A stretch of DNA of 64,000 nt from Athripsodes cinereus (lineage: Eukaryota > Arthropoda > Insecta > Trichoptera > Leptoceridae). Of the stretch, positions 17,566 to 64,000 are shown in pieces (positions within the stretch are counted from its first letter, which is position 1; every line of letters begins with the position of its first letter). Under the pieces are notes generated by a model. The model was not told where the DNA came from. It made no database searches and saw only the letters and a program-made list of their open reading frames with translations. The stretch spans positions 23,748,951-23,812,950 of the forward strand of contig OX388311.1 in NCBI GenBank assembly GCA_947579605.1, read 5' to 3'. The translations under genes were made by a program, and so were the position numbers.

Positions 17566-20500
17566 AATTTAACACATGAAACTACCATATAAGGCTTAGA
17601 AAAGACAACGTCACCTTATTCGGTAGTGCCCCGGACGGGACTTGAACCCGCATCCCTTAACCTTGTCGCGAGGAGTGCTTTGTCCAATTAAGCTACCGGG
17701 CGACTTGCCGAAGGCTCCGATATTCTCTCTTATAAACCCGATGACAGCTTCATGTGTAGGTATTGTTCTGAGATACCTAGTATGGGTATCCCATGTTGGA
17801 TACTACCACATGTAGTCAGACAGGATTATACCTATCATGAACTCTCTAGGTATGATTCCAGAGACATCTATTTATATTCTATTATCATTTTTGGTTTGTA
17901 TCATTGCTGTTAGCTTTGATGCGAACCTAGATGTCGCTAGTGTCACTGAACATTTTTCTCACTGAGCAGGTGAGTCGACAGGTATGTTAATCGATGTATT
18001 TTTACAATTGAACCATTGTATGAGGTCATATATGTAAATTTAACACATGAAACTACCATATAAGGCTTAGAAAAGACAACGTCACCTTATTCGGTAGTGC
18101 CCCGGACGGGACTTGAACCCGCATCCCTTAACCTTGTCGCGAGGAGTGCTTTGTCCAATTAAGCTACCGGGCGACTTGCCGAAGGCTCCGATATTCTCTC
18201 TTATAAACCCGATGACAGCTTCATGTGTAGGTATTGTTCTGAGATACCTAGTATGGGTATCCCATGTTGGATACTACCACATGTAGTCAGACAGGATTAT
18301 ACCTATCATGAACTCTCTAGGTATGATTCCAGAGACATCTATTTATATTCTATTATCATTTTTGGTTTGTATCATTGCTGTTAGCTTTGATGCGAACCTA
18401 GATGTCGCTAGTGTCACTGAACATTTTTCTCACTGAGCAGGTGAGTCGACAGGTATGTTAATCGATGTATTTTTACAATTGAACCATTGTATGAGGTCAT
18501 ATATGTAAATTTAACACATGAAACTACCATATAAGGCTTAGANNNNNNNNNNNNNNNNNNNNNNNNNNNNNNNNNNNNNNNNNNNNNNNNNNNNNNNNNN
18601 NNNNNNNNNNNNNNNNNNNNNNNNNNNNNNNNNNNNNNNNNNNNNNNNNNNNNNNNNNNNNNNNNNNNNNNNNNNNNNNNNNNNNNNNNNNNNNNNNNNN
18701 NNNNNNNNNNNNNNNNNNNNNNNNNNNNNNNNNNNNNNNNNNAAGATAAGAAGATTCTTGTGCTGGTATTTGGAGAATGCAAACACCAATGTCTCTAGAA
18801 TGAAACCTAGGTATGGTACTAATTCTGTGCAAGCTTCCTCTTCCAGTGTAGCAAATGCAGAACAAGCCGCCTCTTGGACTCGTTTGTTGCTGTCCAAAAT
18901 ACGTTTCAACAACTGTAACCAATAATATTTTGTTAAACAAAATTTAACAAACAAATTTTCTATTGGAATATGTTGTGCCAAAATCTATAGTCACAAAATT
19001 ATACAGGCAAAAGCAAACCAATCCTCCATTACATCTCCATTTGTTAACTCAGCTACACAACTACATATTAGTGTTAACTCGATACAAAACATTGATTATC
19101 CCAGTTTGAGGCTGGTATTGGATAATACATTGTTGTGTAATGCCAATATTTTTATTAAATACAAGAAGTTTTATAAGATAATGTTAGATAGAATGCAGGT
19201 GGTGAATATCTTGAAGAGTTCCAAAAACATAAATAGAAACACTTCTATAAGTGATGTTTTTCTAATTATTGCTACAGAATAAATAGTGCAAACTTACTTC
19301 AGTGAGCAATGGTTTAAGGTAGAGCTCATGAGGCTGGCTGACCACCCAATGAGAATATCTGGAAAGGGTCCAGCAAGTGATGGCTCTCACGAGAGCCTTG
19401 TTATCTGAAAGTCTGCCTACCAGGTAGGGCACCAACTCTGAGAGGTGTGGCATCATGCCTGTGAGACATCCTTCAGCAACAGCTCCCAAAACCAAGATAG
19501 CACTCTCCTGTGGAAATAAACAATTTCAAAATGATATTAACAACCTCAAGGAAAGTAGTTACTTCTTTAAGACAATTTTTTGATGACAGTGTTGAGCAAA
19601 ATTTCTTTCACTATGATTTAAAATTGTCTATAATAATGAAAATAATACACTTAATTGTAAAAAGAAGTTTTCAGGAACCTAGGAAAAAACAGAATCCAAG
19701 CGTTTTTTAAATATACCCATTTCAAACCCCTCTTGTATCATAAAGAAAACAGGTCTTTATAGACATTTATTATCATAACTGAGGAGTTTATATCAATAGC
19801 CAGCATTTCATCTACTTTATTATTTTCTGTACATGGGTAAGAACAGCAATCATTACAAAGTATCATAAAATTATCACTTATACAATTCAATGCACAGAAG
19901 GCAAATTTATCACTAGATTGTGATATCTTCGAATTAAATCGGTCACGATACTGGCCATAACACCTTCAAAATTTCATACAAATTAAAACAACACATAAAT
20001 ATAAAGACCTTTATACAGTAAACCCTCGCTATTTCGAACCCCGTTATTTCGAAATTCGTCGTAATTCGAAATATTCCCCCCAAAAATGTCCCCATAATGA
20101 AATTTTCATACAAAAGACATTTATAATTCGAAATCCCCGCTAATACGTAATTCGAAATAATATTTGGTCCTTTCAAAACAAAACAATAGAAATTTGTATA
20201 TTGTAATTCGAAAACATTTGGTTGCCATAAAAAATACCCTTATTTTTTCCCAAAGCTCCTTCAGGGACAATAAAACTTATTATGTGAAATTTGTGTTCAC
20301 ACTAATACACATAAAGGACCTACCCACTACCCAGCTACATAATAATATTTAACAACGGGATTTCCAAATTTCTAAGTAGATCTCCTATGTTGTATGTAAA
20401 CATCGTAAATGTATTGTATTTCAATATGTACCTATCTACAGCTGTTTTGAGTATGTACCAGGTACCTGCTACCTATATATATCCTCTGGCTCATAGCGTG

Positions 20501-30230: not shown

Positions 30231-33200
30231 TTAATTAATACTTTCAAGTGGAACCCACATTTCAACAGCTGAGTCACAAGTTCCAATAGCCAAGACATCA
30301 TTTTCATAAGACATCTGTAAATAAAAACAATCAAATAAATAATACATCGCAACAAACACATTACATTGCCAAATAAATATAGTGGGTGGAATAAAGTTTA
30401 ATAATAACAATAAGCTGAAATTGATATGTAAAAATAAAGAACAGTATACAAGAAAAAAAAACTTACTGCAGATATCTTTGAATGTGCTGATGCTGTGGAA
30501 ACTTGAATGGGGGGAAAGGATGGATTCATGATACTAATTTTACCAGCCTCAGAACATGCAAATAATGCTCCAGGATTTAGAACTAAGCCATTTATTTTGG
30601 AACCTTTCGTTGATGTGAAAATTGATGTTGTTGAGAGTTTTTGTAGAGTTCTCATGTCCAACAAATGTATATTGCCATGAGTGTCACCAGCGTACAGAGC
30701 GTGAGGACAAAAATCATAACTGGTTGCTAATGATAAAGCATATGTATGTAGCGTAGAATCTAAATGTTTTCTTCTCCTTAACAAACCCTTTCTCATGTCA
30801 AAGATTGCAATTGTCTTATCTTCTGAACAAGTGTACAACATGGGTGTGTCAGGTTTGGGATATGTGATATCTAATACTGAAGCTTTGTGGACTTTGTGTG
30901 ATGACACTGGACGATTTCCAGATCTTTTATCCAGTATTACGATTTCTGGTGAAAATAAACCAGCCACGGCAACATTTTCATCAACACATGTGATGCATAA
31001 TACTGATAAGGCACATCTAGAAATAGAAAATAATAAATATGTAATATAAATAAATAATAATCACTTAAAATCCTTCATATTTGCATTAAAATTATATAGA
31101 TACTTTTTTACAAAAAATCTTTGTAACTAACACATTTTGAATTGAAAAATAAAATTAAATTAAAATTAGGTGATAAGAATAAAATCAAAAAACTTTAAAT
31201 GCGCCCTTGCGGTGGTTTTGTATCACAAAATGGTGCTTAATAAATTGAACAGTTTATTATTATTATTACAAATTGATAAAACACAGATCTCTTTGTAGGT
31301 ACAACTGTTTTATGCTTTGGATGAAACTGAAGCGAGAAATTATCAATTTCACACTCACTTTAATTTAAATGCATTATTAAAGGTTTTAATTGAAATGTTT
31401 ATGAACCACATTCAGTATTTCAAAGGGTTATTGTTTTAAATAAATATACAACACATTTCATTATATTGTATGGATATCTGAATAACTACTACTACCATTA
31501 TTATCCCATCATGATCCCACAAGTGAGGTAGCCAGCAGCCTAGCTGCATGAAATAAACATGCAAGATGTCCTCTCCGTGCCAACAAAAAATTAAGACATT
31601 CAGGATAGGTGGATATCTTAATAAAATAAAGGCATACTGTATAATTTACTGAGCTATTATTTTCATTGGAAATTATGGTTTTCAATATATTTCTCATTAC
31701 ACATTTTAAATCCCAGATAAAAGATATTTATATAAAATAAAATTCTGTTTGATTCTAATGGAGTCTAATTGTATTGTGATAATATCAAAAAAATATTTTT
31801 GATAGATGGAAAAGATTCATGAAGAGTCCAAAATGGACTTACTTAAAGGAATTTACTTCTTGGAGTTCTCCATTCAATGTCCAAACTTTAACACAACTGT
31901 CCCATGCAGCGGAGAATATAGTATCAGTGGAGGTTTTTGGACTGGCTAAATCCCATATCCAACCCTCATGGGCAGAAGTTTTTACAGTAGGTTTGATACC
32001 TTCTCCACTGCCATTTTCCACTCTTGTGGTATCTTTTACATTCCAAACTGCAATTGTGCGATCACGTCCACCAGAAAGGCAAACAGTCCCTTCCTAAAAA
32101 GAAAGAAATTAATTTAATAGAAACACGCCAAATAGAATATATATGCATAATGGTCTCTCCTTTCCGATTTTACCAAGGAGGTTTTAATTATTATAATAGG
32201 CCTAGTTTGAGTTTAACACTACATCATTTTTGTTTACAATTATTTTTTTCATAGTAGCACTGTACCATGTTTGAACAAAAGTGATGCCATAATACATTTC
32301 TAAAGTGGAACATATGCCCTCTGATGGTGCGCTCTATGAACAAACTAAACAGTTTCAATTTCATATAAATTTGTATAAGATAATTTTAATTTTCCAGTAA
32401 ATTTTGTTAATTAATCACAATTATGCTTAGAATGGTGTGTTTCTGTGTAGTATATACTTTCCCTAAAAACAATGAATGAAAGAAAAAATTGTTAAAATAT
32501 TTGCGTGCACTAAACATTTGAGGTTGCCATCCTTTTTATTCTAAGTTCTTATTTTCAGTTTATTACATATACATAATAATAATAATCTTTATTGCACAAA
32601 ATAAAAAAAAGAACATGACAACATTACCACTGAACACATAATTTTGTGCAATGGGCGAGTTTATCGCTGAAGCGCAATATCTTCCAACTAACCCATCAAA
32701 CAAAAAAACAATTCATAAAATAATAATAATATATAAATAAATAAAATAATTTAAGATATATAGATAACTAAATACATAGGTATACCAAAATAAATTTACA
32801 CATAGAATAAGCTACTTAAAATACAAACAACCACAGATGTTGAGTAGGGAGGGATATATATTAATCTATACCATCACATCAACTCCCACAAATGGGGTAG
32901 CCGATGAACAAATTGCATGTTGCGTAATGAACATACAGGTTGTCATAAAAATATGATTTTTCAAAAGACCGCTATTATAGGCATTTTCACTTTTTACGTT
33001 TTTTTTTGTCTTCCTTTCAATAAAATAAGGTGTAATGTGAAACTTCAGAAATTTTTGAAAGGCTATATTGATTTAATACCTACTTAATAAAATTTTGCTT
33101 TTCAACATTTGTATGGGAAATCATCACAAAATTTAGCAGTTGGAGCGCAAATGTCAGATGACATCACACTTTGGAAATGTATTTATATTTCACTTATACT

Positions 33201-52560: not shown

Positions 52561-53559
52561 GCAAAGTCCTGTGGTTCAAACTCTCTAGGACCGCCGATAA
52601 AATATACCTAAATTATATGAATGTAGAAAAAATGTTTGATCCATAGAACACGTGCAAAAATAGTAATGATTAACTTACTTTAGGTTATTTCTGATTGCCT
52701 ACATTATAGGTATCATTCTCTTGGATATTTTAAAATGTTTTCCTTGAAAATTTAGTTGACGATCCGTGAAATACACAATTGGCCAATGCAGTATCGAAAT
52801 GGAAATGACGAATGCTTTTATTTTATCAACTGCATAGATATGTATGATTTGTAAATTCAAATAACCAACTATGAAAAATTTATTATTTTTGCATTACCTA
52901 CGGAGAGTTGACTGGAATTATTGTAAATTTTTCGTTTCCAAACTCCACAAACAGTATAAACTTTTATCTAAGTAATCTTATCAGACTGCCATTCATCATT
53001 TTAAAAGGTTTTGTACTTGGAAATTCCCACGATTACGTTCTGAATGAAACAAGTTTGGATCTTCCCCAATGTGAAAGGAGAAATTGAGCATTCTAGATAT
53101 CTAAAGAAGATTCCTTCTTATTGATTAAACTCCGAAAAATGAGCAGAAACATTCTGCCCACTCTGAGAATCGAACCCACGACCCCTCGCTTGTAAGTTAA
53201 ATGTTTTTGAATACTTAGACGTTAATCATGTAGTAACGTGTATGTGATAGTTATATCTATGTGAACTTGTGAATTTTCTTGATTCAAGAAGGAAAACATT
53301 CGGAGAAGTAGTTTTTCACTCATTTTTGATGTCTTTTTTATTACATCAGAGCGTACTCTAAACATGCAACTAGTTGCAAGCTATCTTTTTCGAAGAATGT
53401 AATATGACCGTGATAACATGAAAAGAACACCTCGACAATATTTATTCGAAATTCAATCTAATTTCAAAAGTCAATAACTCTGATTCAGTTCTGTGTACAG
53501 CAAACATACACCAGCTGCACCCACCTGGTCTTTGAAATAGAAACAATTTATTATAAACA
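52561..53559. other. Non-coding stretch with one SINE
   Basis: No gene recognised. 53125-53200 holds a minus-strand family B SINE head (GAGGGGTCGTGGGTTCGATT). The rest is AT-rich sequence running up to the LTR. Confidence 0.5.
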
Positions 53560-56500
53560 TGACACAGCCCCGCTCTTCTCCTTATGGCCTCCTTGCTCTG
53601 AGAAGGACCTCCAGCCGGCTAGCTCGATCTCAGGGTGAGAGAGGGGATGGTCAACAAAAGAATTGAAATGAAAAGTAAAGGTTCCAATATTTACTCTGTT
53701 AGTAGGGCAATAACTGAAAGAGATTATTATACTTCGCACTATTATTCATTTATTAAAAAAAAAAATGTACAGGAGTTAATTAATATAAATTGAATGAATG
53801 AGTATAAACTAATATTATAAGTCTGGTGAGAGCAATTAATTAGAATATCGCGACGAGAATACCTAAGTGGCAAGTTCGTTCTACTATGGGACGTGTTTAT
53901 TATTATAAAAAGATTCTAAGAAAACAAAATCACCTACAATTATCCAAACGAAATGAAAATATCAATTTACATATAAAAAAAAAAAAACAAAAGGAAAAAT
54001 AAAAAATCTGGCCTTAAGTATCTTCGGATCTCCTGCCCTGATGGAACTCCGTCTCTCCGGGAATGGCGGGAGAGAGTGGCTTTCCCTCGCGTTACGTAGG
54101 CTGCCTCGCTGGTGATTTTTCCTCTAAGGGTGCGGCACACACACATATGATAGCAAAATGATAACTAGTTGTTCTGTTTGGCGAAATCTCTGTTTTATGA
54201 GGATGAAGTTACAAAGTTATTAGGCGCGTTACTGCTATTAGGTATATTTTAATTTTATTAATGTTCGTAGAAAGTCCTCATGACATTTCTGTACTGGCAA
54301 GTCTAATATTATGGTGATTTTAATTTATTATTGTTACTTAATGTATGAAATTAAATTAACGACACTTTCACTTTCGCAAGATTTTTCTATTGATAAGAAT
54401 AAATCTATTGATAAATAATTAATTCTTCTATTTATTCACTCCCGATTAACTTCGGTTTGCAAATTTTGATTTGTTTTACAACACTGTCTCGAACAACAAT
54501 TAACTCGAATTTAATTAACTAAGACCTAATATTTCATACTGGACTAAGGATGACGCGATTTGATTGATAACTAATTTTAACTGCAGGCTACTCTTATTAG
54601 TAGCTTTTTTCAACTAACTCGGGAAACTCTTTTTCACAACTCTTGTTCTAAACTCTTTTCCCAACTCAACTCTGTTCTCAACTCACTCCCAACTCTGTTC
54701 TCAACTTTCTCCCAACTAACTAATTTTTCGCTGCGTCAAAGCTTTTATTTGGATCGTCTCCCACTAGAAACCAAGATGGTGGACTTATTTCTACCCCTCG
54801 CGTATTGGTTGAACGACCTGTAAAGCGTAATGTCTCTGATTGGTTAGAGCAAACCACTCCTCAACTATTTTGCCACACCTCTAGGGATTCCAACTAGAAT
54901 TTGCCACTGGGTACCCGCCTCCAAAGAATCTGATCAGAGCAGACATCTCTGAATCTCGTATGTGATAATTCCAATTAGTCTCTCTCAACTATTTCAACTA
55001 AAGCATTATATAATTATTACATCATTGATAGGTATATTGGTATTTAATTGGTTACATACATTTTTTTTCGCTAATTCCACATTTGATAAATATTACATAA
55101 TAATGGATATCAAGAGATTACAACACATATTCACTAACCCTAGGAATAATTAAGTACAGATCAACCAATATTCAATTATTTCAATACAATAATAGTAATA
55201 ACAATCAATCTCTTGAAATTCGCTTAAATATCATCTATAATTACATTAAGTAAGTCTAATCACATAAAAATTCCATACAATCATTACATACATATTGAGA
55301 TTCAAGGTCATATAAAATATATTCATTTATTTATTTAGTTAAACCTGCCATTTGCCTTTTACCATCTAAAACGTAGATATGACAGATCAATAATATAAAC
55401 AGTCTATAAATATTTAAAAAAAAAATGCGATAATACATTCAAAAAGGAAAAAACTAAACTAATAACAGAAATATAATTCAATTTGGCTCCTATGTAGGTA
55501 TAGCATCATTATCAGTCTACATTCTCTTAATTTTAATATTCTTAATATGACCCTTACAGTGGTGAATTCATAACCCTTCATTATCAAACTTAATTTCTAG
55601 CATTTATCAACTTATCATAATTACATAGTTCAATATTTCAATATACTAAATTTATAGATAATGTATATTTATTCAATATCCTATAGGTACCTACGTTTCT
55701 TGACCATATTATGTACACATACATACACATTATAACTAGGTACAAAAAATAATGTTTACAAGTTTAGCGATATACCTATGAAAGTACCATCAAACAAAAG
55801 TTTGCGATATTCATTGTTCTTAGAGTTCTTTATTTTTTTTTAAAACAAAATATATTTTTTTAACACATTTCTGAATGGGTAGGTTATCTATTCTTTTTCG
55901 ATGTACATTTTAAAACATAAGTCTTTTGTCGTATAATTCAGAGTGCAGTTTTATTGCAACTATTTCTTAAAAAACAGGAAACGATTCATTTCTAAATTTA
56001 GTTAATTTAATGTTCCCCAATAAACATGACATATTTGAAACAATACCATCTTTCTGATTTATAACCTCTACTATCTTTGTTGTTTCATAAAACACCGCCA
56101 TGGAAGTAAAGATGTCCCCTTTTTTTTTTGGTTAGTTAATAACACATGTGACCTTGGTTCGTTTTTAAATGTCTCTCTATTCTTTGATATTTTTTTTTTT
56201 TAACTTTGCGATGGTAGGTACTTATTTTCTTATGAATTTCTTTTTGTGCTGTTCAAATGTCGTAAAAGGTCGGCAAGTTCTTTAGGTATATTGTTTTTAA
56301 AATATTACTTTTTTTTTTAAAATACTTTACCAAGAAGAGGATAATTGTTTTCAACACTTCTAATTTTTATTGCATAACTGCCATAAAAAAAATATTTTAG
56401 TCATTTTTGCAACTTAAGACTTGATTGTCTATAAATATTTATTGATTTCTAAAATATTGAACAAAGCAACCTTTGGCGGTATGCAAGTATTGTCAACTTT

Positions 56501-57804
56501 CTTAAAACTACTAAAATTGAATTCTAAAAGACAAAAAAAAATATTATTTCGAGGGACACTGCTTAGCGTGCTATATCAATCCGCCCCCTCCACTTTCACT
56601 CGCAAATAATTTTTTTTCTTATACGGGCAATACTATGGTACTCTTATAGGTTATCGTCAACTAATCTACTTATTTCTATATGCATATTCGATGGTGACAC
56701 CCACCGATGACCTTTCCAATATGTACGTTGGACAATGCCAATGGGTTGTGAGGATCCTATAATTACATAAGACAATTTATCTCTTTGTTCCCGGGCGCCA
56801 AAACATTTCATTTTTTTTCCATATTTGACTGCGAAATGAATAAACCAGTCCTGCTCAGCGGAATTTTCCTCAATTTTCCCCTTGACCTCGTCCCATGTAC
56901 ATATTACATCAGTTTGTCTACTTAACTTACAATATTTATTTATTCGTTATATATTATATCTACTTATTTCCTCTACAAATACTGTATTTTGCCATATCTC
57001 TATCCTAATTAAATCTTATGTCTTATCTCTTTATTCTATATACATGTACATTCTTTCTTACGATTTTACTGTATTCAATCTACAATTCTATCCAATTAGG
57101 TATACATAACTAACACAAATTATAAAATAATGCGCGCATTATCTAATTATATTATACATCATTAACTCACTACCTTATCCATTAATTCGCTACTTAATAC
57201 ACACATTTTACACATATTTCTTCCTTCGATTTAAATTCGAACTTATTCCTATCCATACCTGATTAAACAACAGAAATTCTAACCATTTTTATATTCTTGC
57301 TTAATGCTATATTAATTACTACACATAGATATATGGCATAGTTGTTCAAAGATATTGCTCAACTTAGGTCTTTAACTATACTAATTCATTTACAACATTC
57401 TTGATTTTCACGAATTTATCTATACCAACAATTAATCCTACTCCTAGCCTAACACTTGCTACACTATATACATATCCACATATTATTTATTTATATATCA
57501 ATCAATATCATTACTCATTTAGATAAATTTACCATAGACATTATACTACACATTTACTCTTATTTGTTTAATTGATACAGGCCTCTCTTTATAGGCCACA
57601 ACCTATATGAATTATTCCTTATACACAAATATGATAATTAATTAACATTAGATTTTTACATCATACATACTTGAATTGCACACAATAATCTACAAACGAC
57701 AGCAAATCGTTATTAATATATATTAAAACAACAATACGAATAAAACACACTTAACAGCTACAGTCATATTCAACAGATAATTATCATAATGTACATCAAG
57801 TACA
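53560..57804 (-). repeat. Left LTR of Ty3-type element (3' LTR; right edge tentative)
   Basis: 53560-56167 matches 61392-64000 base for base except one base in an A run, so this is an LTR. It begins TGACACAGCC. Because the element reads leftwards, this is its 3' LTR. The inner edge cannot be fixed by comparison because the right copy leaves the window. I placed it at CA 57803-57804, beside a purine-rich tract on the minus strand (GAAAGGGAAGGCA). That gives 4245 bp; the firm minimum is 2608 bp. CAACTC-rich simple repeats lie at 54600-54720. Only short ORFs without known domains are inside. Confidence 0.8.
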
Positions 57805-57819
57805 TGCCTTCCCTTTCAT
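57805..57819 (-). promoter_or_regulatory. Candidate polypurine tract
   Basis: Minus strand ATGAAAGGGAAGGCA directly before a TG, 360 bases downstream of the integrase tail stop. It is the best purine run between that stop and the LTR; tentative. Confidence 0.35.
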
Positions 57820-58179
57820 AATACAATATTATTACACACTTATGATAATCAATGAAGAAATATTGGGAAGAACGAAATTGCCAGCTTAAGCTCTCAGTCC
57901 GTGTGTTTTCACAATACACCACGTCTTAATTTCGAAAGGGTAGTAATTCTTATCAGTAAGTAAATGCTAGATTATTTTTTTAAGTGTCGCTCAGTGAACA
58001 TATTAGTCGAATATTTTATTTACACTATACATACCTAAAGTTACATCCCGCTACGCCTATAATTCCTTCTGTTATACCTATCGATTTATTATGAATTACA
58101 GTTCGATTGATAATGATCCCGCTATTTTATGTACCTAATTTACCTATCTATATACATACTTATACCTATCATATGCACC

Positions 58180-58416
58180 TTAATTTGCATTTTCTTCCTC
58201 TACAGAGGGGGACGTTCCTGTCGCCTCCTCTACTCCTATTTCCGGTGCCAAACGCAAATCATCAACATGGACTTTAATAGGTTTACCCCGTCTATCAATC
58301 CAATACACAGTACCTTTACCAATGGGTAGCAACACCTTGTACGGGCCAATCCACTTTGGCGCAAAACCTCCATGAAACCCAGCTGCATGGTTGGAGAGAG
58401 GGTGATCTCTAAGCAT
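58180..58416 (-). pseudogene. Integrase C-terminal tail, separated by an in-frame stop
   Basis: Seventy-eight codons in the same frame as the Pol protein and three codons beyond its TAA. The segment LRDHPLSN, then FAPKWIGPYKVLLPIG, followed by VYWIDRRGKPIKVHVDDLRL, is the GPY-type chromatin/DNA-binding tail of Ty3-type integrases. The ATG at its start need not be a real start. It is either cut off by a nonsense mutation or reached by readthrough. Confidence 0.85.
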
Positions 58417-58422
58417 TACCTC

Positions 58423-60453
58423 TTATCCCGTTATATACCTGGGAGCTATAGTGGCTGCTGGAGCGTACCTCTGTCCGTATTGCGCTTGTTGCTGACGGAT
58501 AAGATTATCACCAACTTCTCTGTCTCGGTGTACAGTACCTGTTTCATCTTCGTGAGTATTTACACGCATACTCCACTCACCTACTTGTTTCTTTTCGTAA
58601 CCCAAAAGAGCTTGGGACGGGGTTACTCCCGTCGCCTCGTTCCTCCTACCTCGAAGAGCTCCTATTATCTGGGGTATTTGATCGTCCCAATGCTTATGCT
58701 CGCGGCCTAATAATTTAATTCGCAAACCTTTTTTAATCTCCTGATTCCGCCTCTCTGCTGCGTTTGCTCGTGGGTGATAAACCGCTGTGGTCCAATGCCG
58801 ACACTGCCATTTATCAATAGCCGCTTTCCACGAACGGTGTGTAAATTGACGACCATTATCCGATATAATAGCTCGTGGGAAACCGTATCGCGAAAATACC
58901 TCATTTTCCAATAGGTTAGTGATGTTGGTAGCTTTACCTGTACGCATCGGGAATGCCTCTACCCACTTCGTGAATAAATCTGTTACTACTAATAGCACAG
59001 TATTTCCTCTGATTGAACGAGGATATGGTCCCATTAGATCCACCGCTATTAACTCGAACGGATTTTGAGCTTGCATGGCCCCTAATGGCGCTCTGGGTCG
59101 CTCAGGACGTGCTCTTGTCCTGGCACAAACCATACACCTTTTAACATGCCGTCTAATATCACTGGCCATCCCCGGCCATATGTAATATTGTTTAATAGCG
59201 CGAATCGACTCCTTTTCCCCGGGATGTACCGCGCTCTCACTATCATGATAAAATTTAATAACCCGGTATTTCATTACTTTAGGTACAAGTAATTTCCTCC
59301 CTGGCGTACCTGGTATAGTCCGGTATACATAGCCATCCTCGAGATTATAATTTCGTAACCGGTTTCTCACCGCTACCGGTACTGAAGCATGCTCGGTCGA
59401 CGATAATCTCTCCAGATGTGCTATTATCCGTTGAATTCGGACATCAGAGCGTTGCGCGTTTCGTACGCTATCTACTAATACTTCCATATTCTCTACGTTA
59501 GACGCAACGTTTTGTTGATTACAAGACTCACCTTCTATGTGCATAATAGCAGGTATCTTGCTCTCTTCCTCACTCTTCTCCTCCGGTAGTGTAGTAGGTA
59601 TTTCAGGTAACATAACATCTTCCAATGGCATAGTACGTCTAGCAGGTAACAAGTGTGTGGTAACTCTCTCCGTCTTTCCGAAATGTAAACAACCGCGGTA
59701 CAGATCAATTACCGATCTATAACGAGATAACCAGCCTATTCCCAATATAATTTCTTCTCTAAGCGCCCCGCTAACTAAGAAGCTCTCATTCATTATAACT
59801 CCCTGTAATGAAAATTCTATATTCATTTCCCCTTTCACTTGCATAGCGGTCTCTATACCCGCTAGCTGCAATTGCATAATACGCGACCTTTCATATCGCT
59901 CACCCTTCACTAGGGCGCCTCTAACAATATTATGCGTCGCCGCTGAATCTACCAGGGCCGTACACTCCTTACCACGGATTTTAACCCTTATCCTCGGGAG
60001 TGTGACGCTGATATCACTTGCGATTACTTGACATTCGGGTTCTTCCACAACATCGATTCTATCTAGGTCCTCTAGAAGCGTTCTTCTGCTTACACTGGGA
60101 GCTTGCTTACCGTTATCACAGCAAGCGGGGTTCGGTTGCGCAACCTCGCCCCATTGTCCCTCAGAAGAAGCCCTCTCAGTACCTCCCGGATCCTCCCGAT
60201 GTACTTGCGCAACTACTTCTATACTTTCGCCGTCTCTTTCACACACTTTTCTACCCACATCAGTACCTACACTATCCCGCGTCATACCTACTCGTTCCAC
60301 GGTCTCCGTAGCAGTCGAGAAACGCGGCCGTGAGCGTCTCTCGTCTCGTGTTTGTTTTACTGCCTTTGCCCTTGGGCCGGACGTGGTCCGACGTTTTCGC
60401 GACCCGGGCGGCGAGCGTTTAAATTTCGTTGAGCATTTCCTCCATGAGGACAA
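58423..60453 (-). CDS. Protease-integrase polyprotein lacking reverse transcriptase
   Basis: A 676-codon open frame overlapping gag by 97 bases in the -1 frame; translation probably enters by frameshifting at 60417-60423, joining at about residue 13, so the ATG is not needed. Residues ~150-258: retropepsin-like domain with ALVDSAATHN (D169; the usual D-S/T-G reads D-S-A) and the flap-distal ILGIGWL. Residues ~259-325: linker rich in Glu and Pro. Residues ~326-443: integrase N-terminal zinc domain, H403, H410, C440, C443. Residues ~460-620: catalytic core, D472 (AVDLMGPY), D532 (ISDNGRQF), E567 (NAAERRN), correct spacing for a D-D-E integrase. The RT and RNase H (about 500 residues, YxDD motif) that normally lie between protease and integrase are absent, without any break in frame. 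Ends at TAA 58423-58425, just before the integrase tail. Confidence 0.9.
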   Translation of the reverse strand: MSSWRKCSTKFKRSPPGSRKRRTTSGPRAKAVKQTRDERRSRPRFSTATETVERVGMTRDSVGTDVGRKVCERDGESIEVVAQVHREDPGGTERASSEGQWGEVAQPNPACCDNGKQAPSVSRRTLLEDLDRIDVVEEPECQVIASDISVTLPRIRVKIRGKECTALVDSAATHNIVRGALVKGERYERSRIMQLQLAGIETAMQVKGEMNIEFSLQGVIMNESFLVSGALREEIILGIGWLSRYRSVIDLYRGCLHFGKTERVTTHLLPARRTMPLEDVMLPEIPTTLPEEKSEEESKIPAIMHIEGESCNQQNVASNVENMEVLVDSVRNAQRSDVRIQRIIAHLERLSSTEHASVPVAVRNRLRNYNLEDGYVYRTIPGTPGRKLLVPKVMKYRVIKFYHDSESAVHPGEKESIRAIKQYYIWPGMASDIRRHVKRCMVCARTRARPERPRAPLGAMQAQNPFELIAVDLMGPYPRSIRGNTVLLVVTDLFTKWVEAFPMRTGKATNITNLLENEVFSRYGFPRAIISDNGRQFTHRSWKAAIDKWQCRHWTTAVYHPRANAAERRNQEIKKGLRIKLLGREHKHWDDQIPQIIGALRGRRNEATGVTPSQALLGYEKKQVGEWSMRVNTHEDETGTVHRDREVGDNLIRQQQAQYGQRYAPAATIAPRYITG

Positions 60454-61280
60454 TCTCTATTTAGATGTGGTCCATCACAGTTGTAACAGCGCGGTGGTCT
60501 TTCTTGTCGGGCATAATTATTGTTTCTCGCTGGCGGACCTGTATACACGGCCCCTCCTACAGGGTACACTCTTTCTATCGGAGAGTCTATTTGGTTCGCC
60601 CTTTCCCACAGCTCTGTGTACGACGCATACTGCTCCCTTCTTAGCGCGTCGCGATACCTCGGCGTCATTAACGTAATAACGTGATGAATGAACTCACCCC
60701 ACGGCTGATTTCCGAACAAGCGAGTGAAGACTCTCCCTTTCCGCTCCAGGAAATGAGTGGCTAACTCATCCGGCATTTGAGGGTCTGCGTAGAGGTGCCC
60801 CGTGAGCGCTTGTCTCGCCCTTTCTTCACCATACCTATCTATGAGAAGTTTCGTAAACACACCCCATTCGGTGTGTCTACTACCTCTCGCCCTCCACCAT
60901 TCTTTGGCCGAGCCTCTTAACCGTTCAGCCGCTATCCGGACCTTTTCTCCGCCCTCTATCTCGAATCGGCGAAAGTGCTTTTCACACATTATGATGAACT
61001 CGTTCGGAGACTCTTCAGGCCGACCAGCAAAAGTGCCCGAGATCGCATTCCTCCCTTCATTGTACAATAGTACATACTGAGGGTGGTTTGCAACCTCCTC
61101 TACCTGAACCGGTACACTTTCAGTCGGTTGCTCGCTACTGGCATCTGATGCCGCATTCCTGACTCTCCGAGTACCCCCTTGTTCACCTCGCGACACCACA
61201 GATGTAATAAAGAACCTCATATAGAGGGTTAACAATCCTCCCAAACCAGCCATCGCGCCTACCAACAGTATTGGAATCAT
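60357..61280 (-). CDS. Gag-like capsid/nucleocapsid protein of LTR element
   Basis: 307 codons. Starts MIPILLVGAMAGLGGLLTLY, a hydrophobic segment of about 24 residues, which is unusual for Gag. Residues ~75-235 have the retrotransposon Gag fold pattern (FEIEGGEKVRIAAERLRG, SAKEWWRARG, F..LLIDRYG, MP.ELATHFLERKGRVF). A zinc knuckle C265-x2-C268-x3-H272-x4-C277 (CYNCDGPHLNRDC) lies near the end. The Gag stop is 97 bases into the overlap with the protease-integrase frame. It should package element RNA in cytoplasmic particles. The open frame is intact, in keeping with a recent insertion. No database search was run. Confidence 0.85.
   Translation of the reverse strand: MIPILLVGAMAGLGGLLTLYMRFFITSVVSRGEQGGTRRVRNAASDASSEQPTESVPVQVEEVANHPQYVLLYNEGRNAISGTFAGRPEESPNEFIIMCEKHFRRFEIEGGEKVRIAAERLRGSAKEWWRARGSRHTEWGVFTKLLIDRYGEERARQALTGHLYADPQMPDELATHFLERKGRVFTRLFGNQPWGEFIHHVITLMTPRYRDALRREQYASYTELWERANQIDSPIERVYPVGGAVYTGPPARNNNYARQERPPRCYNCDGPHLNRDCPHGGNAQRNLNARRPGRENVGPRPAQGQRQ
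60417..60423 (-). promoter_or_regulatory. Programmed -1 frameshift site TTTAAAC
   Basis: The minus strand reads CGA AAT TTA AAC GCT in the gag frame, so the canonical slippery heptamer T TTA AAC is in register, at gag codons 287-288. A -1 slip leads directly into the protease-integrase frame. GC-rich sequence follows; the clearest hairpin (CGGAC-CAC-GTCCG) starts 26 bases downstream, further than usual. Confidence 0.75.
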
Positions 61281-61391
61281 GCTAATAATTAAATAATTAT
61301 ACCTAACAATGAAAATAAAATAATAAAATCGGGTCCCCGCTAATTATACCTTATAGGTATTATAATTAGCAACCACGTTGGCACGCCACTG
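61281..61391 (-). other. Leader of LTR element with tRNA-Lys-like primer binding site
   Basis: Directly after the right LTR on the minus strand there are three bases and then TGGCGTGCCAACGTGG (61373-61388). This resembles the site complementary to the 3' end of insect tRNA-Lys (TGGCGCCCAACGTGG) with one small change. The rest of the 111-base leader is AT-rich up to the Gag ATG. Confidence 0.55.
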
Positions 61392-64000
61392 TGACACAGC
61401 CCCGCTCTTCTCCTTATGGCCTCCTTGCTCTGAGAAGGACCTCCAGCCGGCTAGCTCGATCTCAGGGTGAGAGAGGGGATGGTCAACAAAAGAATTGAAA
61501 TGAAAAGTAAAGGTTCCAATATTTACTCTGTTAGTAGGGCAATAACTGAAAGAGATTATTATACTTCGCACTATTATTCATTTATTAAAAAAAAAAAATG
61601 TACAGGAGTTAATTAATATAAATTGAATGAATGAGTATAAACTAATATTATAAGTCTGGTGAGAGCAATTAATTAGAATATCGCGACGAGAATACCTAAG
61701 TGGCAAGTTCGTTCTACTATGGGACGTGTTTATTATTATAAAAAGATTCTAAGAAAACAAAATCACCTACAATTATCCAAACGAAATGAAAATATCAATT
61801 TACATATAAAAAAAAAAAAACAAAAGGAAAAATAAAAAATCTGGCCTTAAGTATCTTCGGATCTCCTGCCCTGATGGAACTCCGTCTCTCCGGGAATGGC
61901 GGGAGAGAGTGGCTTTCCCTCGCGTTACGTAGGCTGCCTCGCTGGTGATTTTTCCTCTAAGGGTGCGGCACACACACATATGATAGCAAAATGATAACTA
62001 GTTGTTCTGTTTGGCGAAATCTCTGTTTTATGAGGATGAAGTTACAAAGTTATTAGGCGCGTTACTGCTATTAGGTATATTTTAATTTTATTAATGTTCG
62101 TAGAAAGTCCTCATGACATTTCTGTACTGGCAAGTCTAATATTATGGTGATTTTAATTTATTATTGTTACTTAATGTATGAAATTAAATTAACGACACTT
62201 TCACTTTCGCAAGATTTTTCTATTGATAAGAATAAATCTATTGATAAATAATTAATTCTTCTATTTATTCACTCCCGATTAACTTCGGTTTGCAAATTTT
62301 GATTTGTTTTACAACACTGTCTCGAACAACAATTAACTCGAATTTAATTAACTAAGACCTAATATTTCATACTGGACTAAGGATGACGCGATTTGATTGA
62401 TAACTAATTTTAACTGCAGGCTACTCTTATTAGTAGCTTTTTTCAACTAACTCGGGAAACTCTTTTTCACAACTCTTGTTCTAAACTCTTTTCCCAACTC
62501 AACTCTGTTCTCAACTCACTCCCAACTCTGTTCTCAACTTTCTCCCAACTAACTAATTTTTCGCTGCGTCAAAGCTTTTATTTGGATCGTCTCCCACTAG
62601 AAACCAAGATGGTGGACTTATTTCTACCCCTCGCGTATTGGTTGAACGACCTGTAAAGCGTAATGTCTCTGATTGGTTAGAGCAAACCACTCCTCAACTA
62701 TTTTGCCACACCTCTAGGGATTCCAACTAGAATTTGCCACTGGGTACCCGCCTCCAAAGAATCTGATCAGAGCAGACATCTCTGAATCTCGTATGTGATA
62801 ATTCCAATTAGTCTCTCTCAACTATTTCAACTAAAGCATTATATAATTATTACATCATTGATAGGTATATTGGTATTTAATTGGTTACATACATTTTTTT
62901 TCGCTAATTCCACATTTGATAAATATTACATAATAATGGATATCAAGAGATTACAACACATATTCACTAACCCTAGGAATAATTAAGTACAGATCAACCA
63001 ATATTCAATTATTTCAATACAATAATAGTAATAACAATCAATCTCTTGAAATTCGCTTAAATATCATCTATAATTACATTAAGTAAGTCTAATCACATAA
63101 AAATTCCATACAATCATTACATACATATTGAGATTCAAGGTCATATAAAATATATTCATTTATTTATTTAGTTAAACCTGCCATTTGCCTTTTACCATCT
63201 AAAACGTAGATATGACAGATCAATAATATAAACAGTCTATAAATATTTAAAAAAAAAATGCGATAATACATTCAAAAAGGAAAAAACTAAACTAATAACA
63301 GAAATATAATTCAATTTGGCTCCTATGTAGGTATAGCATCATTATCAGTCTACATTCTCTTAATTTTAATATTCTTAATATGACCCTTACAGTGGTGAAT
63401 TCATAACCCTTCATTATCAAACTTAATTTCTAGCATTTATCAACTTATCATAATTACATAGTTCAATATTTCAATATACTAAATTTATAGATAATGTATA
63501 TTTATTCAATATCCTATAGGTACCTACGTTTCTTGACCATATTATGTACACATACATACACATTATAACTAGGTACAAAAAATAATGTTTACAAGTTTAG
63601 CGATATACCTATGAAAGTACCATCAAACAAAAGTTTGCGATATTCATTGTTCTTAGAGTTCTTTATTTTTTTTTAAAACAAAATATATTTTTTTAACACA
63701 TTTCTGAATGGGTAGGTTATCTATTCTTTTTCGATGTACATTTTAAAACATAAGTCTTTTGTCGTATAATTCAGAGTGCAGTTTTATTGCAACTATTTCT
63801 TAAAAAACAGGAAACGATTCATTTCTAAATTTAGTTAATTTAATGTTCCCCAATAAACATGACATATTTGAAACAATACCATCTTTCTGATTTATAACCT
63901 CTACTATCTTTGTTGTTTCATAAAACACCGCCATGGAAGTAAAGATGTCCCCTTTTTTTTTTGGTTAGTTAATAACACATGTGACCTTGGTTCGTTTTTA
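61392..64000 (-). repeat. Right LTR of Ty3-type element (5' LTR), truncated by window end
   Basis: Begins TGACACAGCC and matches 53560-56167 over its whole visible 2609 bases. The only difference I found is 12 versus 11 A residues in the A run near 61586 (53755 in the left copy). It continues beyond the window, so the target duplication cannot be checked here. Confidence 0.92.

What the first reader, a model, noticed from the sequence alone, without database searches (positions are those of the whole stretch)
57805..61391. LTR retroelement with Gag, protease and integrase but no reverse transcriptase
Seen: a single 676-codon frame passes from a retropepsin-like domain (D169) through ~70 linker residues straight into the integrase zinc domain and an intact D472-D532-E567 core. 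No YxDD or RNase H signature exists in any frame between 56168 and 61391. Known: Ty3/gypsy Pol is PR-RT-RNaseH-IN. Inference: a clean in-frame RT loss, or a lineage of elements that borrow RT in trans yet keep their own Gag and integrase. Near-identical LTRs show that it mobilised recently in this form.
Basis: partly seen in the sequence, partly recalled or inferred. Interest (0 to 1): 0.88.

Follow-up and report, generated by a model that had tools for sequence, protein, structure and literature searches.

The report
One-off retrotransposon copy missing reverse transcriptase
This is a single, recently inserted copy of an ordinary Ty3/gypsy-type retrotransposon that has lost its reverse-transcriptase segment in frame; the other four copies found in the same genome still carry that segment, so it is a defective offshoot and not a new kind of element.

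Summary
On the minus strand, an LTR element's pol frame (60456-58423) runs from protease straight into integrase, with no RT. But its own refutation test is met. Five copies of the junction region were found in the genome. Only the window copy has the arms joined; in the other four they lie 1,437 bases (479 codons) further apart. The extra segment, scanned in two of the four, is RT plus RNase H. One RT-bearing copy has almost identical LTRs and the same primer site. The breakpoint abuts an 11-base repeat, and 24 of 25 differences from the closest copy fall in one tract around it. This points, without proof, to template switching during reverse transcription. The integrase is not intact: a stop at 58423-58425, absent from the three copies compared, removes its last 81 codons. 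The LTRs (3,019-3,020 bp) show no substitutions, and a 4-base target duplication flanks them, so the insertion is young. Verdict: a real but ordinary deletion derivative; no second copy supports an RT-less lineage.

The parts
61392..64000 (-). 5' LTR (TGATATAG...CTGTGTCA, 3,020 bp); continues 411 bases past the window end
61369..61388 (-). primer-binding site, a variant shared with the copy at C13:15.0 Mb; two other copies (C13:3.1, C21) have TGGCGCCCAACGTGGGGC (tRNA-Lys type, name recalled)
60357..61343 (-). gag frame (328 codons stop to stop, first Met at residue 22); Retrotrans_gag match below its cut-off (E 0.017); CCHC-like knuckle by eye
60417..60423 (-). TTTAAAC slippery heptamer in the gag/pol overlap, in register for a -1 frameshift from gag into pol
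   Evidence: the function of the heptamer is recalled knowledge
58423..60456 (-). pol frame, 677 codons: linker, protease, then integrase with no RT/RNase H between
59734..59997 (-). retropepsin-like domain (residues 154-241; active-site D170)
59553..59566 (-). deletion junction beside the 11-base repeat GAGCAAGATAC; 1,437 bases (479 codons) absent here, present in the four other copies found
   Evidence: RT and RNase H in the segment of two of them
59110..59286 (-). integrase zinc-binding domain (residues 391-449)
58771..59064 (-). integrase core domain (residues 465-562; D473, D533, E568)
58423..58425 (-). premature stop, found only in the window copy among four compared
58180..58422 (-). 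severed C-terminal part of integrase, in frame behind the stop
56579..58179 (-). 3' non-coding internal region, present in the five copies; polypurine tract at its end (56579-56600)
53560..56578 (-). 3' LTR (3,019 bp)
53556..53559 (-). target-site duplication TGTT (its other copy lies just outside the 5' LTR, past the window end)

Best explanation
It is a single defective deletion derivative of a low-copy Ty3/gypsy-type LTR retrotransposon family whose other copies encode RT and RNase H. Shown: 479 codons are missing in frame beside an 11-base repeat; none of the other four copies found has this junction; the copy is a true insertion with target duplication and near-identical LTRs. Inferred: the deletion arose by template switching during reverse transcription in a particle whose RT came from a full-length element of the same family, probably as part of a recombination between two packaged RNAs, and the shortened cDNA was integrated once. 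The copy cannot now make its own RT, and its integrase is also truncated. The confidence given is for 'unique deletion derivative of an RT-bearing family'; for the template-switching step within it about 0.6 (the first rival is the main alternative for that step).
For: Junction DNA searched in the own genome: 9 of 9 candidates scored, 1 joined and 8 halves from 4 copies. The 3' non-coding region gives the same five copies, 5 of 5 candidates scored. The missing length is 1,437 in 4 of 4 copies; Pfam finds RVT_1 and RT_RNaseH in the segment of the 2 of 4 copies scanned. The closest copy (C13:15.0 Mb) has LTRs differing by 1 and 4 substitutions in about 3,020 (two pairings) and the same primer and polypurine sites. 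24 of 25 differences between the window copy and that copy over 3,291 internal bases fall in one 933-base tract that straddles the junction; 0 of 20,000 uniform draws reach this. Two bases at the junction derive from the right arm beside the repeat, as a cDNA end carried over in a strand transfer would leave. 4-base target duplication, 0 LTR substitutions in 3,019.
Against: The breakpoint alone does not distinguish cDNA template switching from DNA replication slippage after insertion. No donor of the divergent tract was found among the five copies. No raw reads were available, so the junction is not verified against an assembly error. RT and RNase H were not scanned in two of the four other copies. 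The genome search warns that absence of a match does not prove absence. Supply of RT in trans is inferred, not shown.
Confidence: 0.87

Rival explanations
1. The deletion happened after a full-length insertion, by DNA slippage or end joining at the 11-base repeat (a variant of the best explanation that differs only in when and how the RT segment was lost).
For: The repeat at the breakpoint would serve this as well; the copy carries a further private lesion, the stop at 58423-58425.
Against: The differences from the closest copy are concentrated in a tract around the junction (24 of 25), which points to a recombination event rather than a simple later deletion; elsewhere the copy has had almost no time to change (0 LTR substitutions).
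Confidence: 0.25
2. A lineage of elements that keep Gag, protease and integrase and habitually borrow RT.
For: The frame is open across the junction; an RT-bearing copy with almost the same LTRs and the same primer site exists; from protease to junction the window copy has 6 private changes, 5 of them amino-acid changing, against 0-2 private changes in each of the other four, as might be seen in a lineage with relaxed selection.
Against: No second copy with the junction was found (9 of 9 candidates scored, 1 of 69 matches covers the whole frame, with 66 of 2,273 candidates scored). The integrase is itself truncated. In the linker before the protease the window copy shows no excess of private amino-acid changes (3 changing, 2 silent; others 4/0, 1/3, 4/1, 2/1). 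A random deletion keeps the frame one time in three.
Confidence: 0.06
3. The junction is an assembly artefact.
For: No reads could be examined; the family has near-identical copies.
Against: The only N run in the window is far away (18543-18742). Private substitutions lie on both sides of the junction, and the two bases at the breakpoint come from the right arm, so it is not a simple collapse on the repeat.
Confidence: 0.05

Closest known systems
RT-bearing copies of the same family in this genome (C13:15.0, C13:3.1, C4:33.76, C21:16.49 Mb)
   Same: LTR ends TGATATAG...CTGTGTCA (for C4 only its 3' LTR was checked), polypurine tract in the three checked; 95.6-99.7% DNA identity in the long gag-protease and integrase alignments (integrase of C13:3.1 not compared)
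   Different: They carry 479 codons more, shown to be RT and RNase H in two of the four; three of the four have an open frame of 1,237-1,238 codons, the fourth 991
Mouse IAP 1-delta-1 proviruses
   Same: Internal deletion (1.9 kb, part of gag and pol) that leaves a fused open frame in a copy needing proteins in trans (PMC6466679, passages seen)
   Different: IAP 1-delta-1 removes part of gag and pol and causes most new IAP insertion mutations (same passages); here gag is whole, the RT/RNase H part of pol is lost, and the junction was found once
BARE-2 (barley)
   Same: LTR element lacking one of its own genes and borrowing from a full-length relative (PMC7730604, passage seen)
   Different: BARE-2 lacks Gag (same passage); that it is a multi-copy subfamily is recalled

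Membership tests
Ty3/gypsy-type LTR retrotransposons | Two LTRs with TG...CA ends and a short target duplication | tested here: met
   TGATATAG...CTGTGTCA, TGTT on both sides; 4-base duplications also in the three other copies checked (C13:15.0, C13:3.1, C21)
Ty3/gypsy-type LTR retrotransposons | Pol order protease - RT - RNase H - integrase | tested here: not met
   The window copy lacks RT/RNase H. In copies C13:15.0 and C4:33.76 RT and RNase H lie between the two arms, so the family meets it and this copy lost it
Ty3/gypsy-type LTR retrotransposons | Membership by RT phylogeny; clade within the group | not tested
   no tree built; only Pfam matches to RVT_1, RT_RNaseH and RT_RNaseH_2 in two copies
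Trans-mobilised deletion subfamily (IAP 1-delta-1 type) | Internal deletion that leaves a fused open frame | tested here: met
   1,437 bases missing, frame kept
Trans-mobilised deletion subfamily (IAP 1-delta-1 type) | Several insertions sharing the same deletion | tested here: not met
   1 of 5 copies found has it
Trans-mobilised deletion subfamily (IAP 1-delta-1 type) | Demonstrated need for, and use of, helper proteins | not testable with these tools
   needs expression or transposition data

The most novel reading that the evidence does not exclude
The 933-base divergent tract, with the deletion inside it and an excess of amino-acid-changing private substitutions in the protease, came from an RT-less lineage that had been replicating with borrowed RT for some time; the window copy is a recombinant that acquired this tract, and other members have been lost or are absent from this assembly.
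Probability: 0.06. Interest if true: 0.45.

Novelty: new member of a known kind. Interest (0 to 1): 0.12.

Why it matters
As found, it is a clear small example of how defective retrotransposon copies arise: an in-frame loss of RT at a short repeat, inside a divergent tract, in a young insertion. It would matter more only if the same junction turned up repeatedly, because that would be a retroelement keeping protease and integrase while parasitising another element's RT.

Tried and rejected
Considered and rejected: an RT-less lineage (no second junction found); RT hidden in another frame or strand (no [YF]xDD in six frames); an LTR boundary at 56168 (window-edge effect); a recognisable third gene in the 3' region (the 100-codon frame 56946-56644 has no Pfam match).

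Led nowhere: the protein search with the pol frame (7,999 candidates scored, lengths limited to 0.55-1.75 times the query) gave 11 proteins. None lists a protease with integrase and no RT or RNase H: 8 of 11 list an RT or RNase H domain, and the three that list integrase domains alone (P0002, P0008, P0011) list no protease (precomputed Pfam labels, sequences not read). Gag (60357-61283): 0 hits among 4,319 candidates. Literature: 2 listed of 2; 0 found; 12 of 171; 15 of 22; 10 of 109; 10 of 10; 10 of 59. In the titles and abstract beginnings listed I saw no paper on an RT-less protease-integrase LTR element; this covers only those terms, the open-licence papers held and the rows listed. A search for a host tRNA matching the variant primer site did not complete.

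Not tested: whether the related high-copy family (the other 61 of the 69 matches, 61-62% identical) has RT-less copies. One of these (L009) was scanned and has RT, RNase H and integrase; one with a shorter frame (L019) was only listed for ORFs.

Full report
What is there. The element lies on the minus strand. Reading that strand: 5' LTR (starts 411 bases beyond the window end, runs to 61392), a primer-binding site (61388-61369), a gag frame (61343-60357), an overlapping pol frame (60456-58423), about 1.6 kb of 3' non-coding sequence, a polypurine tract (56600-56579) and the 3' LTR (56578-53560). The LTRs are 3,020 and 3,019 bases, begin TGATATAG and end CTGTGTCA, and differ by one gap and no substitution in 3,019 compared sites. 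The insertion is flanked by TGTT on both sides. The gag/pol overlap contains TTTAAAC in register for a -1 slip (its meaning is recalled).

The pol frame. It has 677 codons, with a retropepsin match (154-241), integrase zinc domain (391-449) and integrase core (465-562). No [YF]xDD motif occurs in any frame of 56168-61391. The observation of protease running into integrase without RT is therefore correct. The claim of an intact integrase is not: the frame ends at a stop (58423-58425) that is absent from the three other copies compared, which read on for 81 codons in the same frame.

Other copies. The window's own genome (716 Mb, 160 contigs, unnamed) was searched. With the pol protein, 69 matches were returned (66 of 2,273 candidates scored, so a lower bound). 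One, the window itself, covers residues 1-677; four cover 1-301 and three 276-677 at 93-96% identity, in open frames of 991-1,238 codons; the remaining 61 belong to a related family at 61-62% identity. With 301 bases of DNA across the junction, 9 of 9 candidates were scored: the window copy matched through, and four other copies (C13:15.0, C13:3.1, C4:33.76, C21:16.49 Mb) matched as two separate halves. The 3' non-coding region gave the same five copies, 5 of 5 candidates scored. In the four other copies the arms are 1,437 bases further apart. The intervening segment was scanned in two of the four (C13:15.0, C4), and in both it matches RVT_1, RT_RNaseH and RT_RNaseH_2. An LTR search gave 40 matches (40 of 120 candidates scored), of which 21 cover at least 941 of the 1,001 query bases: ten belong to the five elements and eleven stand alone, so they look like solo LTRs (their full length and flanks were not checked).

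The breakpoint. The left edge in the other copies reads ...GAGGAATTGAGCAAGATACTGC and the right edge ...AAAACAGAGAGCAAGATACCTGC; the window reads ...GAGGAAGAGAGCAAGATACCTGC. Both edges share GAGCAAGATAC, and the two bases just before it in the window come from the right edge. A nascent minus-strand cDNA that had copied the right edge, moved to the left edge by pairing over the 11 bases and was extended from a two-base mismatch would leave this. Slippage of a DNA polymerase on the chromosome could leave the same, so this is support and not proof.

A divergent tract. Over 3,291 internal bases the window copy differs from its closest relative (C13:15.0 Mb) at 25 sites: none in the first 1,031 bases, 24 in the next 933, which straddle the junction, and one (the stop) in the remaining 1,327. 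None of 20,000 uniform draws put 24 of 25 in such a span. Thirteen of the 24 are private to the window copy (12 before the junction against four other copies, one after it against three). From protease to junction the private changes are five amino-acid-changing and one silent in the window copy, against 0-2 private changes in each of the other four. In the linker before the protease there is no such excess: 3 changing and 2 silent, against 4/0, 1/3, 4/1 and 2/1 (sites counted where the other four agree). The simplest reading is recombination with an element not among the five copies of this assembly; whether that donor already had the deletion cannot be told.

Age. LTR pair differences are 0 of 3,019 (window), 3 of 3,020 (C13:15.0), 2 of 2,892 (C13:3.1) and 10 of 3,085 (C21); the C4 pair was not compared. 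By this count the window insertion is the youngest of the four, with small numbers. No calendar age is given because no mutation rate for the host was looked up.

How it most likely works. A full-length element supplied Gag, RT and integrase; during reverse transcription, probably with two different RNAs in the particle, a strand transfer skipped RT and RNase H; the product was integrated once. The five-copy family includes an RT-bearing member with almost the same LTRs and the same primer and polypurine sites, so a suitable source of RT was at hand; the transfer itself is inferred. The copy now encodes Gag and a protease-integrase product truncated at its end, and has no RT of its own.

Comparison with the known. 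[quoted passage not shown] BARE-2 borrows Gag from BARE-1 (PMC7730604, passage seen). The present copy resembles these in being a partly deleted LTR element with open frames, but only one copy was found, so it is not shown to be a subfamily of that kind.

Verdict.

Noticed in passing
window 61369-61388; copies at C13:15.0, C13:3.1, C21:16.49 Mb (L041, L043, L047): The window copy and the C13:15.0 copy share a primer-binding site variant (TGGCGTGCCAACGTGGTTGC), while two other copies have TGGCGCCCAACGTGGGGC, a tRNA-Lys type site (name recalled). Whether a host tRNA matches the variant is open: the search did not complete.
   Followed up: partly
window 56585-58170: The non-coding 3' region differs from the C21 copy at 8 sites of about 1,513 aligned, whereas the integrase part differs at 33 of 1,466 and the LTR by 48 mismatches plus gaps over about 3,100 aligned columns: the non-coding part is the most alike; recombination or constraint, not tested.
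   Followed up: no
C4:33.755-33.760 Mb (L045, L007): The 5' LTR of the C4 copy lies about 3.5 kb further from its gag than in the other copies, and the first 540 internal bases do not align, suggesting an insertion or rearrangement there.
   Followed up: no
own genome, related family (for example L009): A related family, 61-62% identical in integrase, makes up 61 of the 69 matches (a capped list), 55 of the 61 with 1,198-codon open frames: it looks like a recent expansion.
   Followed up: no
window 18543-18742: A 200-base run of N; the frames beside it look like a transportin/importin-type gene (by eye, not searched).
   Followed up: no
window 30398-31060, minus strand: A 220-codon frame that looks like part of a WD-repeat protein gene (by eye, not searched).
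   Followed up: no
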